Shown in pieces: positions 507-18,145 of a DNA stretch of 64,000 nt (its first letter is position 1; each line of letters begins with the position of its first letter). Both the position numbers and the translations under genes were made by a program. The notes beneath the pieces were generated by a model that saw nothing but the letters and a program-made list of their open reading frames with translations, ran no database searches and was not told the origin of the DNA. Source of the DNA: a virus; the IMG/VR virus record IMGVR_UViG_3300005613_000001, positions 440,279 through 504,278 of that record. The stretch is one strand, 5' to 3'.

Positions 507-1427
507 ATGCCATTTTTTCAAAATCCATTTTTTCAAGATTTTAGAGGATATTTAGTTCTGGGGGACAGACAACTGAGCCCCGTATTTACGTGCCCATTGC
601 ACGCCCAGAGAGGGCATGGGGAAATTGTCTCTATAGATTTGACAGCAACCCCTTATGATTTAACTGGGGCTGATGGGGATGGTAACGATACAGACGAATT
701 AGTAATAAATTATGCCATCGATCCCGCTTTGCGTGATTTTACTTCCATCACTGTAAATATTGCTGCTGAAGCACTTGTGCCTGCTGCTGCTACATTGGTG
801 GAAATCGTCACCAGCTTAAATGAAGATGATAATTTTGCAGCTTTCTTTGAAGCAAGTCAGCAATTTACAGCAACCGGAGCAAATCCCACAGGGCGAGTGA
901 TTATTAAAGCTAAACTCCCCGCAGAACGCATTAAATTTTATGTTGCTAATACCGGGGCTGAAACCATCCTAAGATTTAATGCTCGGGCTGGGGTCAAAGA
1001 GCTACCTTCTTATTTTGCACGACATACTGTAGCAAACAGATACACTTATACCGATGGTACTGCCCTGCTTATTGAACTTGATCCAAGTAACGGAGGCGGA
1101 GCTTCTGCTGTGGATGACGATGTTATTGATAATGCCGTAGATTTGAATGGCGTGTCACTAGGGTACGATTCATCTACAGTTCAAGAAGATTATGAACTTC
1201 TTGATGGGCAATCTGGGCTATTTACGTTCCAAAATATTTGCTTAGATGGAAATGGAGATATTGCCCAAATTATTGAATATCACGCAGGCGCAGGTGTAGG
1301 TGATCTAGCAAGAAAAATTTGTTATTTAAGAGATGGTGATACAAACCCAATTCAAATTACAGAAGAACCATATGTTTTAACGGCAGATGACTTGGTAGAG
1401 CCTGATTGTACCGATTGTCCGGCATAA
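507..1427 (+). CDS. Putative virion structural protein
   Basis: A 306-residue acidic protein preceded by AAGAGGAAT before ATG 507. It opens with MPFFQNPFFQDFRGYLVLG and continues with long stretches of Thr/Ala/Asp-rich beta-type sequence (residues 60-190) and a C-terminal part with Cys residues ending CTDCPA. No enzymatic motif and no membrane segment is visible. The composition and length are typical of phage decoration or tail-associated proteins, and the flanking genes also look like late genes, but no specific family is recognised. It stands alone between a terminator at 410-442 and a promoter-like motif at 1611. A TAAATA sequence about 35 nt upstream could serve as its late promoter. Confidence 0.6.
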   Translation: MPFFQNPFFQDFRGYLVLGDRQLSPVFTCPLHAQRGHGEIVSIDLTATPYDLTGADGDGNDTDELVINYAIDPALRDFTSITVNIAAEALVPAAATLVEIVTSLNEDDNFAAFFEASQQFTATGANPTGRVIIKAKLPAERIKFYVANTGAETILRFNARAGVKELPSYFARHTVANRYTYTDGTALLIELDPSNGGGASAVDDDVIDNAVDLNGVSLGYDSSTVQEDYELLDGQSGLFTFQNICLDGNGDIAQIIEYHAGAGVGDLARKICYLRDGDTNPIQITEEPYVLTADDLVEPDCTDCPA

Positions 1428-1610
1428 TCAAATAAATAATAGGGTCCAATAAAGAGGCGTGGGTTCCTTAATACGGTCATCAAATTGACAATTGTGTGCA
1501 TCCACACCCACTAATCGCCCCAAAGATCTACGTCTTCCTCGTAATCCGCCTATACCAAGATTAACTAAATTATTCATACCTTATGTATTCTTCAAATTGA
1601 GAAATAGTTG
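1428..1610. other. Intergenic stretch without visible genes
   Basis: The 226-bp gap 1428-1653 shows no convincing short coding region on either strand: an in-frame extension of the next gene back to 1492 lacks a ribosome site and reads as random sequence. Apart from the promoter-like motif at 1611-1624 I see no clear hairpin with a T-run. Confidence 0.5.
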
Positions 1611-1624
1611 CATATATAAGGTAG
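1611..1624 (+). promoter_or_regulatory. Late-promoter-like motif CATATATAAGGTAG
   Basis: CATATATAAGGTAG lies 30 nt upstream of the start at 1654. The same 14 bases recur upstream of the serine protease gene (17183-17196), and CATATATAAGG recurs on the minus strand before the collagen-like fibre gene. It resembles the single -10-like box of T4 late promoters (TATAAATA) and has no evident -35 partner. Confidence 0.6.
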
Positions 1625-1653
1625 ACGTCATTTTTTTACAGAGAGGTAATTCG

Positions 1654-2229
1654 ATGGACGAAATTAAAGTAGAAGTGATCCGTACCGAGGATGGCAGATA
1701 TGCCGAGCGTCACGTCAGGGAAGTTGCGGAAAGTGATCCCTGCGGAAAGTCCTTTGAAGCTGAAAAGGTCATCGAGCAATGGGAAGAAGATCGCCCCTTG
1801 CTTCTCAAAAAGCGAGTGCGCGAGAAGAGACAACCATGTGTTGTGGAAAGAGTTGTTGAGACAATTGAAGACAACGAAGTGGTTGATGTTCAAGTAGAAT
1901 CTATTGAGCCTGACACCAAGCTTGAATTAAGATCTCACATTGCAGTTGCCAAGCCAGAAGTAGGTGCAGCAAAAGTCGATGAGTGCTACGTAACTAGAGA
2001 TGATCTTAAAGAAGTCATGTTAAGCGTGACAGAACAGTTGAAAGATGCTTTTGAAAACCGAGAGGTTGCTGAAAGACGACCGAGTTCTCGCATGCAAGCG
2101 GTAGTAGAAGAAGAAGTTGAACAGGCTGATGATGAAAAATGGGGAGCAGTAGAGTGGATTCTTCTGGGCATTGTAGCCATCGAGGGTGCCTATCTACTAG
2201 TGAACTGGCTGCCTCGTCTGCTTGGGTAA
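1654..2229 (+). CDS. C-terminally membrane-anchored acidic protein
   Basis: A 191-residue protein. The start at 1654 follows GAGAGG with 8 nt spacing; longer in-frame starts have no ribosome site. Residues 1-160 are highly charged (Glu/Lys/Arg/Val rich) and predicted helical; the only hydrophobic segment, about residues 164-186 (WILLGIVAIEGAYLLV), is close to the C-terminus and is followed by NWLPRLLG, so the protein looks tail-anchored with its charged domain in the cytoplasm. No family is recognised. It has its own promoter-like motif 30 nt upstream. A role at the host inner membrane is inferred only from topology. Confidence 0.65.
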   Translation: MDEIKVEVIRTEDGRYAERHVREVAESDPCGKSFEAEKVIEQWEEDRPLLLKKRVREKRQPCVVERVVETIEDNEVVDVQVESIEPDTKLELRSHIAVAKPEVGAAKVDECYVTRDDLKEVMLSVTEQLKDAFENREVAERRPSSRMQAVVEEEVEQADDEKWGAVEWILLGIVAIEGAYLLVNWLPRLLG

Positions 2230-2331: not shown

Positions 2332-2365
2332 AAAAGCCTTATGATTTTAGATCATGAGGCTTTTT
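2332..2365. terminator. Probable bidirectional terminator
   Basis: AAAAGCCTTATGAT (2332-2345), loop TTTAG, ATCATGAGGCTTTTT (2351-2365): a stem with one mismatch and T-runs on both strands, sitting between the plus gene ending at 2229 and the minus gene ending at 2365. Confidence 0.7.
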
Positions 2366-2889
2366 CATTTGAATCCCCACTTTTTAGCCATCCTACCAAA
2401 CCACTGATCCCTAGCTTCAACTGCCTGCTCTTCCCTCTCTTTGCGACTCTCTTTCTTGTCATCGCCTCTTAATTTTGAGGCGACTCTAAAAAGCCCCTCT
2501 ATTTGATCTTCCCATCTGGGATGAGGCACATAACTTTCTAGTTCGCCCGCCTCCTCTTTGAAAACCAAATAACCCTCTGCTAACACCGTGATAGTCTTAT
2601 TGAGGTATTGTATCTCTAAATGCATTCCACGACTTAAACCATCAAATAAATAACCAACTACTATTGTTTGTTCGCCTTCCTCAAAAACAGGCATTTCCTC
2701 ATCTTCTTCATCTTCTAGTGCCCAAGGGTCTTCCATTTCATTTGTATCATAAAGAGGCGAGGAGTGGGACATAATAGGTTCGCCCATATACTTCAAAATA
2801 CAACCGAATTTTCCCCCAAGACCAAAATAATCTTTATGGGTCGCCTCGATTGTTCTTTGTTCTTTGATTTTTGCTTCTTTGCTCTTCAT
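2365..2889 (-). CDS. Hypothetical protein, charged
   Basis: A 174-residue protein with a Lys-rich N-terminus, an acidic patch around residues 50-70 (EDEEDEEMPVFEEGE), a central beta-like region (TIVVGYLFDGLSRGMHLEIQ) and a charged helical C-terminus ending RMAKKWGFK. No signal peptide, membrane segment or catalytic motif is seen and I recognise no family. It overlaps the 3' end of the upstream MscL-like gene by 56 nt, so the two are probably cotranscribed and coupled. The overlap is long; a start further in (at GEPIMSHS) would shorten it but has no better ribosome site. Confidence 0.55.
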   Translation of the reverse strand: MKSKEAKIKEQRTIEATHKDYFGLGGKFGCILKYMGEPIMSHSSPLYDTNEMEDPWALEDEEDEEMPVFEEGEQTIVVGYLFDGLSRGMHLEIQYLNKTITVLAEGYLVFKEEAGELESYVPHPRWEDQIEGLFRVASKLRGDDKKESRKEREEQAVEARDQWFGRMAKKWGFK

Positions 2890-3403
2890 CTATTTTATTC
2901 TTCGCAAAAGGGTTATCCAAGATAGTAGTGCAATAAGGGCATCTGGCTGATTGATAATGAATTTTACATAAACAAAATGGGCATTCAATTCCCTCGTCAC
3001 AAATTATCTCAGGAGGCTTATCATCCTGTTCAATTCTTCTAAATATTCTGCTGTATAGGTAGTATAAAATCGCTGCAATTATAATAAAATCTACAAATAC
3101 CCCTAAAAAGTTGCCCAATTCAATAACAACTCCTTCTATGGGCTCAAAAACTACCTTTCGCCAATCACCGTCAGCCTGATTCATAATATAGGTCAAGAAA
3201 GGCATGATAAGATGCTCTGAGATAGATGCTACTACATTTTTAAATGCTGCCCCGAGCATAAAGGCAATAGCCATTTGAATCATTCTATCCTTGAATGCAA
3301 ACTCTTTGAACGCCTCAAATTCCTTCCGTCCGACAAGACCTTCGATCTCATCTCCCAACTCATCTTTGATGCGTTCTACATCTATTATTGACTTAGGTTT
3401 CAT
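2834..3403 (-). CDS. mscL: MscL-type mechanosensitive channel with C-terminal zinc ribbon
   Basis: A 189-residue protein. Residues 33-70 (FKEFAFKDRMIQMAIAFML, then GAAFKNVV and IMPFL) follow the N-terminal helix and TM1 of MscL, the bacterial large-conductance mechanosensitive channel; residues about 96-120 (GNFLGVFVDFIIIAAILYYL) match TM2. These two segments and their spacing are the basis for the call. Known MscL proteins form pentamers in the inner membrane that open under high membrane tension. Unusual here are an extra 30-residue N-terminus and a C-terminal four-cysteine ribbon (C141, C144, C155, C158) followed by a charged tail, in place of the usual short C-terminal helix. The start overlaps the divergent late-promoter-like motif at 3401 and no Shine-Dalgarno site is visible, so it may be leaderless or start elsewhere. 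A phage copy could influence turgor or lysis; that is inference. Confidence 0.8.
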   Translation of the reverse strand: MKPKSIIDVERIKDELGDEIEGLVGRKEFEAFKEFAFKDRMIQMAIAFMLGAAFKNVVASISEHLIMPFLTYIMNQADGDWRKVVFEPIEGVVIELGNFLGVFVDFIIIAAILYYLYSRIFRRIEQDDKPPEIICDEGIECPFCLCKIHYQSARCPYCTTILDNPFAKNKIDEEQRSKNQRTKNNRGDP

Positions 3404-3415
3404 ATATATAAATAG
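3401..3415 (+). promoter_or_regulatory. Late-promoter-like motif before the metalloprotease
   Basis: CATATATATAAATAG contains TATAAATA, identical to the T4 late-promoter core, 36 nt upstream of the start at 3451. It overlaps the divergent mscL start codon (3401-3403). Confidence 0.6.
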
Positions 3416-3450: not shown

Positions 3451-4908
3451 ATGTTCGATTGGTTCCAAAACTTTTTAGATTGGTTCTACGGATTATTCTC
3501 TAGCGGCGAAAAAGCCGAGGCAAGGAAAGAGGATTTGTACATCCAATACTTGATGAATGATCCAACGACCCCAGAATTAATGGTAGAAGTCGTGCCACCT
3601 AACCCGCCCAAAGGCATGGATTTCCTAGTTCAAAATTATGTGGGTGGAGGATACCCTTGGGATCATTCCAAGGGACGTGCCGCAAACTGTTATGTTACGA
3701 TGGCGCAAACTATTAAACAAATTCAACGATATTCCCCCAGACCATTACAGCGATGGGCAGCTACGAACACCCTGTTGGTTGTCCCACAAGCGGGAAGACA
3801 ACTAAATGCGTATTATGACCGTAGACATTTGAAGTTTTTCTATGCTTACGATAGAGAAATGCGAAAGGATGTTTATACATCCGACTCAGTGGATATTGTT
3901 GCACACGAATTGGGACACGCACTTTTAGATACTATGCGACCTGACTTGTGGAGCGTACAATCACTAGAAGGATGGGGTTTCCATGAAGCATATTCTGATG
4001 TAAATGCTATTCTGGCATTACTTGGAAATGATGAAATTGTAAATCACGTTTTGAAAGAAACAGAAAATGATTTGAGGAAACATAATGTTGTTTCCAAATT
4101 AGCAGAAGAAATGGGCGATGCCATCTATAATATCACCCGAGGAAGAGATGGTAGAAAACCGGGTGCCCTAAGAAATGCTATTAATAACTTCAAATATACT
4201 GAACCTGAAAAATTGCCCCAAAATGCTCCCCACGATAAATTGGCCGGGGAATGCCATAGCTTTGGAAGATTATTCTTAGGTGCTTGGTATGACTTCCTAG
4301 TGGCTCTCTATGAACATAAACGAGCCCGAGGTAAAACGCCTAAAACAGCATTAAAAGAGGCGAGAGATGTCGCGGGACTTTATATTGTCCGTGGATTATC
4401 TCACGCTCCCGCATGCGTGCGATACTACAATGCTGTCGCTAGAGCTATGATGGCTTATGATAAAACAAAATGTCATTCTCGCTATCAAAAGATTCTTCAA
4501 GAGGTATTCACAAAACGAGGAATCTTGCGTCCAAAAGCTAGAGTCCTTTCTAATTTAACTTGGCAGGGACTAAACCTTAAGAATGATGATGATGTCATGA
4601 AATCAGACCACGGCTGGGTAGTCAGGTCAAAGAAAATTGAAACTTTAAAACTATCGGATCATTTAGAAGCTAGAACCCTAGTGAATAATCCATTGTTTAA
4701 TGTTGAAATTGAAGTTCCAAGAGATAGCTACTTTGAATTTGATGCCAACGGCAACTTAGTTGACCAAATTCAAGAAAGTACCGAGGAAGTAGTGAATGCA
4801 GCTAGAGCTTGTTTGGTCCAATTGGATACCCAAGGACAAGTAGGCGATGGCGAAGACACTATGTTTGCTATCGTAGATGGAAAATTAGTTAGAACTCATA
4901 TTGAGTAA
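3451..4908 (+). CDS. Zinc metalloprotease, thermolysin (M4)-like gluzincin
   Basis: A 485-residue protein with a strong ribosome site (AGGAGG, 8 nt upstream). HELGH at residues 152-156 supplies the two zinc-binding histidines and the catalytic glutamate, and HEAYSD around residues 178-183 supplies the third ligand (E179), as in thermolysin-like M4 and fungalysin M36 peptidases (xEAxSD). The N-terminus is an amphipathic aromatic helix (MFDWFQNFLDWFYGLF), not a clear signal peptide. Residues beyond about 370 form a separate domain of unknown nature ending in a beta-type segment. It lies alone between a late-type promoter and a terminator. Possible roles are virion maturation, degradation of host surface protein or lysis; nothing in the context decides. 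The protease fold call is firm, the role unknown. Confidence 0.85.
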   Translation: MFDWFQNFLDWFYGLFSSGEKAEARKEDLYIQYLMNDPTTPELMVEVVPPNPPKGMDFLVQNYVGGGYPWDHSKGRAANCYVTMAQTIKQIQRYSPRPLQRWAATNTLLVVPQAGRQLNAYYDRRHLKFFYAYDREMRKDVYTSDSVDIVAHELGHALLDTMRPDLWSVQSLEGWGFHEAYSDVNAILALLGNDEIVNHVLKETENDLRKHNVVSKLAEEMGDAIYNITRGRDGRKPGALRNAINNFKYTEPEKLPQNAPHDKLAGECHSFGRLFLGAWYDFLVALYEHKRARGKTPKTALKEARDVAGLYIVRGLSHAPACVRYYNAVARAMMAYDKTKCHSRYQKILQEVFTKRGILRPKARVLSNLTWQGLNLKNDDDVMKSDHGWVVRSKKIETLKLSDHLEARTLVNNPLFNVEIEVPRDSYFEFDANGNLVDQIQESTEEVVNAARACLVQLDTQGQVGDGEDTMFAIVDGKLVRTHIE

Positions 4909-4964: not shown

Positions 4965-5774
4965 TTATGCATATCCAAAAAATCTGTTGTAATCTTGAAA
5001 CCTATTCATAATAGTGTTTGCAAGATCAGGAGAAAAATACTGCCTCCACTCGTTAGGATCAGAAGCCTCAACCTTACCCGATCCCGTGTGTGGGAACTTA
5101 TGCAAATAAAATCCATCAGGGTCTTCAGCGGTGTTCTCTATGTTTTCAAAATCATGCTCAAATAGTGTTTCGTCTAATTCAGTGTAAATCTTCTCAAAGA
5201 CACCATTTGGATCGGCTGCCATACTCTCATACTGAACATAAACAACACCAGGCGGTTTGCGACGAATTAAATCCTCAATTCCTAAAATGGGACCACCTAT
5301 CAAACCCTGTTCACTAAACATACGGTTTGCCCTGTCAAAAACAGTCTTTTGAATGGCATTCTGAGCATCATCCAATAGAGGATTCTTTCGATGTTGTTTC
5401 TCTATAGAAGCAAAAACATTTCTTAAATCCCGCACCATCACAATGAGCTTGGAATCAGGATAAAGCTTCTTTAATGAAAGGGAATTGAGTGACCACGCCC
5501 GGCTCTTATCAAAAATAATCTCCCGACTTTCCTGCTTATACCAAGTTTCTACGAAAGCCTGGATACTATCTGTAATCCGTTGCTCGGTTTCCACCTTCTT
5601 TTTCTCTAAAAGACTTTTTACCTCTACGGCATTACTGATATTATGAACCATACCATTGAGAATTCCCGGCAAAGGAGATGTACTGGTAGCCCAAAACCGT
5701 GGGTTCTGATTCAAAATATTACATAAAAGCGTACTACCAGCCCTCGGTAGCCCCGTAATAGCATTTAATTTCAT
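4965..5774 (-). CDS. Sulfotransferase family protein (1 of 4)
   Basis: A 269-residue protein with the two PAPS-binding signatures of the sulfotransferase superfamily: the 5'-phosphosulfate loop near residues 7-20 (TGLPRAGSTLLCNIL) and the 3'-phosphate site around residues 112-126 (VMVRDLRNVFASIEKQ). The family transfers sulfate from PAPS to hydroxyl or amino groups of sugars, lipids or tyrosines. The length is that of a single domain. It starts immediately after the stop of the 142-residue gene upstream and shares that transcript. The acceptor is unknown; the neighbouring fibre genes make virion glycans or proteins a possible target (inference). Confidence 0.82.
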   Translation of the reverse strand: MKLNAITGLPRAGSTLLCNILNQNPRFWATSTSPLPGILNGMVHNISNAVEVKSLLEKKKVETEQRITDSIQAFVETWYKQESREIIFDKSRAWSLNSLSLKKLYPDSKLIVMVRDLRNVFASIEKQHRKNPLLDDAQNAIQKTVFDRANRMFSEQGLIGGPILGIEDLIRRKPPGVVYVQYESMAADPNGVFEKIYTELDETLFEHDFENIENTAEDPDGFYLHKFPHTGSGKVEASDPNEWRQYFSPDLANTIMNRFQDYNRFFGYA

Positions 5775-17224: not shown

Positions 17225-18145
17225 ATGAAGGGAAATTTAGGCAGGATTGCTGTTATTGCTGCTGTCTTCATTGTAGCAATTATTCTCTTTTCTTCAAAGC
17301 ATCAGGGCAAGGTTCAAACGGATAAACCTCAACTCCCCAATATTTCTAATATGCCAATCGTGATCGAAAGCGATCCGCAATTGGCTGCTATTCAAGGTTT
17401 ATCTCCTGTTGAACAAAGAGGAGAAAAATTCAGGGAATGGTTACAAGCATCATTTAAAATTAAAGTAAGTGGTGCAAGTGGCTCTGGAACATTATGTTAT
17501 TACGACTACGAAAAAAACATTGCTTACGTGATTTCATGTGGGCACTTGTGGAGTGGAAACATGCGTGCGAGGGTAGGAAATACTCGCAAGGCAACAGTTA
17601 TTACTTGGTATCATAATGATAAGAAATTATCATCCCCAAAAGAATACGAAGCTGAAGTTCATTTTTATAGCAACAGCAGGGGTTATGATATAAGTCTTTT
17701 AACATTTAAGCCTGATTGGTTTCCGCAAATTTACTTTCCTATTGCACCACTAGATCATAAAGTGGGCGGCTCTGCACATTCAATGGGATGTGACGGTGGA
17801 GAGGAAGTTGCACATTATGAAGTGGAAATAGTTGGGTTAAAAGATACAAACTTAATCACTAAAAATAACAGCCCACGGCCAGGTCGTTCTGGAGGCGGGT
17901 TGGTAGATAATACTGGTCATTATATCGGTATTTGTTGGGGAACGTCTAAATATGATGGCTCTGGGATTGGATACTTTACGCCCCTTAAAGCCATTCATGA
18001 GCAATTTAAAAAGGAAGGCTATGAATTCCTTTTGGGGCTTCCACCGGCCAGCTTAGCTCGCCAAATCCCAATTATTGATATGCCACGACACACAAAAGGC
18101 GATTATCCACATGATTACATTCCTTTACCGGGATACAGAATTTAG
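17225..18145 (+). CDS. Membrane-anchored trypsin-like serine protease
   Basis: A 306-residue protein with an N-terminal anchor or uncleaved signal (residues 6-22, GRIAVIAAVFIVAIILF), a Pro-rich linker, and a chymotrypsin-fold domain from about residue 80. The likely catalytic triad is H107 (VISCGHLW), D155 (YDISLL) and S222 in PGRSGGGLV. The GxSGGxL loop matches trypsin-like and DegP-type enzymes. No PDZ domain follows; the C-terminus is a Pro/Ile-rich tail. The topology places the protease on the outer face of the cytoplasmic membrane. AAAGGAG precedes the start and a late-type promoter lies upstream. It may process a virion or envelope protein; the target is unknown. Confidence 0.83.
   Translation: MKGNLGRIAVIAAVFIVAIILFSSKHQGKVQTDKPQLPNISNMPIVIESDPQLAAIQGLSPVEQRGEKFREWLQASFKIKVSGASGSGTLCYYDYEKNIAYVISCGHLWSGNMRARVGNTRKATVITWYHNDKKLSSPKEYEAEVHFYSNSRGYDISLLTFKPDWFPQIYFPIAPLDHKVGGSAHSMGCDGGEEVAHYEVEIVGLKDTNLITKNNSPRPGRSGGGLVDNTGHYIGICWGTSKYDGSGIGYFTPLKAIHEQFKKEGYEFLLGLPPASLARQIPIIDMPRHTKGDYPHDYIPLPGYRI

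What the first reader, a model, noticed from the sequence alone, without database searches (positions are those of the whole stretch)
2834..3403. MscL-like mechanosensitive channel with an appended zinc ribbon in a phage
The two MscL membrane helices and their conserved residues are readable, but the protein has a 30-residue N-terminal extension and a four-cysteine ribbon in place of the cytoplasmic helix bundle. Phage MscL genes are not something I know as a standard feature. It may alter turgor responses during infection, aid release, or open an ion path under metal or redox control via the ribbon.
Basis: partly seen in the sequence, partly recalled or inferred. Interest (0 to 1): 0.72.

Follow-up and report, generated by a model that had tools for sequence, protein, structure and literature searches.

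The report
Huge-phage MscL-type channel with zinc ribbon
A very large bacterial virus and its relatives carry their own version of MscL, the pressure-relief channel of bacteria; its zinc-ribbon tail is ordinary in bacterial MscLs, but its extra N-terminal helix and altered pore-gate motif were seen only in the phage family.

Summary
The minus-strand ORF 2834-3403 (189 aa) matches MscL (PF01741, E 1.3e-20; residues 30-128), has about 28 extra N-terminal residues, and has a four-cysteine ribbon in place of the C-terminal helix. The window lies in a 527-kb huge-phage record with T4-type terminase, portal and baseplate genes.

The ribbon is not a phage invention. It replaces the helix in 15 of 30 sampled MscLs from one Bacillota-type phylum and occurs in 76 of 80 nearest cellular loci, with the same four cysteines.

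What is peculiar is a phage subfamily of 12 proteins. It has an N-terminal helical extension and the TM1 motif A[IV]AF instead of A[VI]G[VI]. It sits in one gene slot beside an M4-like metalloprotease gene, upstream of the terminase. In most relatives without MscL the two flanking genes abut; one relative keeps only a ribbon.

Most likely it is a working tension-gated valve placed in the host membrane during infection. Fold, a still-hydrophobic gate and purifying selection support a working channel; the role in infection is inferred. MscL genes in tailed phages have been reported before, so I rate this a new variant of a known kind.

The parts
2834..3403 (-). MscL-type channel gene, 189 aa (P0001)
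   Evidence: PF01741 E 1.3e-20; AF2 model matches MscL structures; TAA stop at 2834-2836
3320..3403 (-). codons 1-28: phage-family N-terminal extension, predicted helix 9-24 before the S1 helix
   Evidence: absent from most ribbon-type bacterial MscLs
3179..3289 (-). codons 39-75: TM1, pore-lining by homology, with altered gate motif MAIAFMLG
3020..3118 (-). codons 96-128: TM2
2924..2983 (-). codons 141-160: four-cysteine ribbon CPFC-x10-CPYC
2837..2917 (-). codons 163-189: C-terminal tail longer than in relatives, overlapping the next gene
2365..2889 (-). g442643, next gene on the same strand, 56-nt overlap; conserved flank of the slot, function unknown
3451..4908 (+). divergent gene with HELGH and a downstream EAYSD motif, weakly M4/M36-like metalloprotease; other flank of the slot
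507..1427 (+). conserved block gene g440785 (306 aa), function unknown
1492..2229 (+). conserved block gene g441770, hydrophobic C-terminal stretch

Best explanation
The gene encodes a homo-oligomeric MscL-type channel of the phage. An ancestor of this huge-phage lineage probably took a ribbon-tailed mscL from a bacterium; it settled between the M4-like protease gene and g442643, gained an N-terminal helix and a shifted gate motif, and was later lost in several branches. During infection it is made in the host, inserts in the inner membrane (TM1 lining the pore, TM2 facing lipid, extra N-terminal helix lying on the cytoplasmic face together with S1) and opens only under near-lytic tension, so it works as a safety valve that keeps the infected cell intact through osmotic down-shock or through phage-caused turgor and envelope changes. 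The ribbon is the cytoplasmic tail inherited from the bacterial form and replaces the helix bundle, probably as a folded cap. Shown here: homology, monomer fold, ribbon ancestry, phage-family signature, slot presence and absence, selection on the protein. Inferred: oligomer, tension gating, timing, role in infection.
For: MscL profile and fold. At the positions of the E. coli gate residues V16, L19, G22, V23, G26 the protein has M41, M44, A47, F48, G51, so the lock stays hydrophobic and should be closed at rest; archaeal MscL of entry 4y7k, its best match, also has AIAF at this place (gate residues from PMC4917966 and PMC5578686). Twelve phage proteins of 34-52% identity to it keep S1, TM1, TM2 and all four cysteines. 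Synonymous sites are near saturation between L116 and L120 (pS 0.85) while pN is 0.16. Conserved position next to terminase and protease genes. The tail is homologous to that of bacterial MscLs. Published phage MscL genes track salinity.
Against: No functional data. The score is below NCBIfam's MscL equivalog cut-off (56.5 against 71 bits), whereas the ribbon-tailed bacterial MscLs tested pass it. The glycine hinge (G14) is D39 here and N15 is lost, so gating may be shifted. Most phages with the same neighbourhood lack it (38 of 41 visible slots empty), so it is dispensable. No Shine-Dalgarno sequence before its ATG, unlike the divergent gene.
Confidence: 0.5

Rival explanations
1. Lysis or release factor: the channel acts late as a tension- or depolarisation-triggered pore, a holin-like step that opens when the wall is weakened.
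For: Membrane pore protein in a block with predicted proteases (M4-like, M28), a DUF3568 protein and a gene with a hydrophobic C-terminus. Phage_lysozyme and Amidase_2 gave no match in the record, an M23 peptidase did.
Against: Most syntenic relatives lack it, so it cannot be the lineage's general holin. The hydrophobic gate predicts a pore closed until near-lytic tension, and a MscL-type hole is too small to let an endolysin pass freely (general knowledge).
Confidence: 0.15
2. Modifier of the host's own channel: phage subunits co-assemble with or replace host MscL and change its threshold or block its pore.
For: Conserved oligomer-forming TM1 with altered gate residues (A47, F48, D39) in a full-length protein.
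Against: Only about 25-34% identical to the bacterial MscLs aligned, so mixed oligomers are unlikely; no inactivating change is seen.
Confidence: 0.1
3. The ribbon is the working part: a zinc- or redox-sensing or partner-binding cytoplasmic module that controls opening.
For: Four cysteines invariant in phage and bacterial ribbon types; one relative (L195) has a ribbon-only ORF in the same slot.
Against: The same ribbon is ordinary in Bacillota-type MscLs, so it needs no phage-specific role; the L195 ORF may be a decaying remnant; the divergent phage copy L216 has no ribbon.
Confidence: 0.12
4. Neutral passenger gene without a role for the phage.
For: Scattered presence and several losses on the terminase tree.
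Against: Amino-acid constraint against near-saturated synonymous sites, retention in deeply diverged lineages in one slot with a conserved signature.
Confidence: 0.08

Closest known systems
Ribbon-tailed bacterial MscL (Clostridia and relatives, e.g. L037, L107 Kineothrix alysoides)
   Same: MscL core followed by CPxC-x8-10-CPxC-T ribbon in the same register instead of the C-terminal helix
   Different: Bacterial forms lack the 28-residue extension, have the motif RGNVxDLAVGVIIG, and the three tested pass the NCBIfam equivalog cut-off
MscL of Methanosarcina acetivorans (PDB 4y7j/4y7k; species from own knowledge, PDB calls it archaeal)
   Same: Best sequence and fold match; also has AIAF at the gate
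   Different: No ribbon in the aligned region; crystallised as a fusion to riboflavin synthase
E. coli / M. tuberculosis MscL (2oar)
   Same: S1-TM1-TM2 plan
   Different: Helix-bundle tail; glycine hinge and N15 present; gate L19/V23 rather than M/F
PHROG 25692 (unknown function)
   Same: Profile covers residues 30-159 of the query, core plus ribbon
   Different: Members not available here; not annotated as MscL
MscL genes on viral contigs near an integrase gene (e.g. L267)
   Same: Phage-linked MscL
   Different: Classical helix tail and canonical motif; beside an integrase gene, not in a terminase-linked slot of a huge phage
LR756511.1, uncultured phage of 595 kb
   Same: Terminase 50% identical and same gene neighbourhood
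   Different: MscL slot empty

Membership tests
MscL superfamily (PF01741) | profile score above the curated cut-off | tested here: met
   74.4 bits against 27.4
MscL superfamily (PF01741) | S1 - TM1 - periplasmic loop - TM2 monomer fold | tested here: met
   AF2 helices 26-36, 39-75, 96-128; top Foldseek hits 4y7k and 2oar
MscL superfamily (PF01741) | hydrophobic pore lock in TM1 (L19/V23 positions) | tested here: met
   M44 and F48
MscL superfamily (PF01741) | pentamer with TM1-lined pore | not testable with these tools
   only single chains could be folded
MscL superfamily (PF01741) | opening by membrane tension | not testable with these tools
   needs patch clamp
MscL equivalog (NCBIfam TIGR00220) | score above the equivalog cut-off | tested here: not met
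   56.5 against 71 bits; phage relative L121 also below (53.6); ribbon-type bacterial MscLs 101-122
MscL equivalog (NCBIfam TIGR00220) | S1 consensus F-[KR]-x-F-[AIL]-x-[KR]-G with glycine hinge | tested here: not met
   FKEFAFKD: all but the final glycine; most phage relatives keep the G
MscL equivalog (NCBIfam TIGR00220) | C-terminal cytoplasmic helix bundle | tested here: not met
   ribbon instead; also absent from 15 of 30 sampled bacterial MscLs, so not defining for the superfamily
Ribbon-tailed bacterial MscL | CPxC-x8-10-CPxCT after TM2 | tested here: met
   four cysteines invariant in 52 sequences
Ribbon-tailed bacterial MscL | RGNVxDLAVGVIIG motif and no long N-terminal extension | tested here: not met
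   KDRMIQMAIAFMLG and a 28-residue extension
Phage huge-genome MscL subfamily (defined here) | slot between M4-like gene and g442643, extension, A[IV]AF gate, ribbon | tested here: met
Holin | pore formation that times lysis | not tested
   no experimental or comparative test available; absence from most relatives argues against

The most novel reading that the evidence does not exclude
A phage-specific gated pore in which the extra N-terminal helix and the A[IV]AF gate reset the tension threshold, so that a huge phage keeps its slowly dying host intact and opens the membrane only at the moment of release.
Probability: 0.15. Interest if true: 0.75.

Novelty: new variant of a known kind. Interest (0 to 1): 0.5.

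Why it matters
If the channel works, huge phages carry their own osmotic safety valve, which would make turgor control of the infected cell a phage-encoded trait that can be tested directly. The presence-or-empty slot gives natural paired genomes for that. As a by-product, the common zinc-ribbon tail of bacterial MscLs, for which I found no description in the searched papers, bears on what the C-terminus of MscL is for.

Tried and rejected
Single-sequence search of viral contigs found no relative; the alignment did. The two 'phage' hits MT837450 and MT835945 encode bacterial housekeeping genes and look like bacterial fragments, so they were not counted as phage. The idea that the ribbon is a phage addition was rejected. 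The idea that MscL is a core gene of the lineage, suggested by synteny of MscL-baited loci, was rejected by the MscL-independent terminase bait. A T4-late-promoter-like TATAAATA lies at 3407 on the plus strand, upstream of the protease gene rather than MscL; AT-rich words are enriched before genes, but no clear promoter for MscL was found. Papers on MscL with a zinc ribbon: none in the library searched. Al-Shayeb 2020 main text (PMC7162821) does not mention mechanosensitive channels. Host of the phage was not determined.

Full report
What is there. The minus-strand ORF at 2834-3403 encodes 189 aa. Residues 30-128 match Pfam MscL at E 1.3e-20, well above the curated cut-off, and the solved structures it matches are MscLs, best the archaeal one in 4y7k. 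An AlphaFold2 model from 52 aligned sequences has mean pLDDT 83 (pTM 0.46), with helices 9-24, 26-36, 39-75 and 96-128 and a confident ribbon; its best PDB matches are 4y7k and then 2oar. The TM-scores are modest (0.34-0.36 over the query), as expected for a single chain of two long helices with extra parts.

Where it is. The window is G000:C1:440279-504278 of a 527,112-base virus record. It is a contractile-tailed phage: T4-like portal with an intein match, T4-type terminase, baseplate proteins, and about 59 predicted tRNA genes. The nearest record in the phage collection by terminase is a 595-kb uncultured phage, 50% identical.

The ribbon. Two records labelled as phage that matched first turned out to hold bacterial genes, and their MscLs end in the same ribbon. 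A genome scan gave 80 best cellular loci, mostly Clostridia, of which 76 carry the ribbon. That set was chosen by similarity to the query, so I also drew 120 genomes evenly from one phylum (that of Kineothrix) and read the 30 MscLs fetched: 15 end in the ribbon, 15 in the classical LLTEIRDLL helix, none in both. The four cysteines are invariant across 12 phage and 40 bacterial sequences. So the ribbon is an ordinary alternative tail, inherited and not added by the phage. I found no paper describing it in the library searched.

The phage family. Alignment-based scans found further viral contigs with the same protein at 34-52% identity. These twelve proteins (the window's included) share an N-terminal extension, mostly 27-38 residues and amphipathic (shorter in L201; the window's own moment is not beyond shuffles), the ribbon, and a TM1 motif A[IV]AF where bacterial relatives have A[VI]G[VI]; the bacterial N15 is gone. 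On a tree of core columns the phage ribbon types group together, with one long-branched canonical phage copy (L209) joining them, which may be an artefact. Synonymous sites are near saturation while non-synonymous change is low, so the protein is under constraint.

The slot. Loci found through MscL are syntenic with the window from the portal to the primase. To avoid that bias I used the terminase as bait: 80 loci. In 41 loci where both flanks of the slot are visible, 38 have the M4-like gene and g442643 abutting (gap -75 to +89 bases), two have MscL, and one (L195) has a ribbon-only ORF. Two more have MscL on contigs or loci that end nearby (L132, L201). On the terminase tree the MscL-bearing phages are scattered over deep branches; the best tree needs 5 changes and well-supported branches force at least 3. 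With the identical slot and shared signature I read this as one old acquisition and several losses; repeated transfer into the slot is not excluded. Other MscLs occur elsewhere: a canonical one in a 381-kb phage record (L209) and a ribbon-less divergent one (L216).

How it probably works. In E. coli MscL, L19 and V23 form the hydrophobic lock, contacts of V16, A20, G22 and G26 hold it, and S1 couples the channel to the membrane through the G14 hinge (PMC4917966, PMC5578686). The phage protein has M41, M44, A45, A47, F48 and G51 at these places, all non-polar, so a pore closed at rest is expected, and archaeal MscL has the same AIAF. The hinge is D39 here and the S1 helix is preceded by a second helix, so the threshold may differ. 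The most economical role is a safety valve in the host inner membrane during infection. That role, the oligomer and the gating are inferred.

Comparison and verdict. It belongs to the MscL superfamily by profile and fold, but lies below NCBIfam's equivalog cut-off, which the ribbon-type bacterial MscLs tested pass. Phage MscL genes as such are known (PMC13288924). New here are the phage-specific subfamily with its extension and gate motif, its fixed slot, and the demonstration that the ribbon is of bacterial origin. I rate it a new variant of a known kind, interest 0.5.

Noticed in passing
L220-L249 (bacterial genomes), L034-L113: About half of sampled MscLs of one Bacillota-type phylum replace the C-terminal helix by a four-cysteine ribbon; no paper describing this was found.
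   Followed up: partly
L010:7265-7425 (G000:C1:167265-167425): Adjacent predicted tRNAs with anticodons CUA and UUA, i.e. putative amber and ochre suppressors, in a phage with about 59 predicted tRNAs; two further calls have four-base anticodons (L007:18940-19023, L009:18908-18994).
   Followed up: no
L195:4761-5072: Ribbon-only ORF in the MscL slot of a related phage, with the membrane part missing: remnant or free-standing ribbon protein.
   Followed up: partly
L216 (record G021): Divergent MscL-like protein of ~119 aa without ribbon and with a changed TM1 (no GAAF), outside the usual slot of its phage.
   Followed up: no
L263-L286 and L297-L300 (viral contigs), L267 checked: Canonical MscL genes on 20-65 kb viral contigs; in L267 the gene lies between an ImmA-like metalloprotease match and an integrase gene, so possibly a lysogenic cargo gene or host flank.
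   Followed up: partly
L025:9339-11912: Portal gene carries an intein-splicing domain match (PF14890).
   Followed up: no
window 4965-5774: Sulfotransferase-family gene (PF13469, E 5.7e-17) in the phage.
   Followed up: no
window 3451-4908; G000:C1:439188-440246; window 17225-18145: Three predicted peptidases (M4-like, M28, trypsin-like) near the terminase; the M28 one starts with a hydrophobic, signal-like stretch.
   Followed up: no
MT837450.1, MT835945.1: Records labelled 'Bacteriophage sp.' that hold bacterial housekeeping genes.
   Followed up: partly
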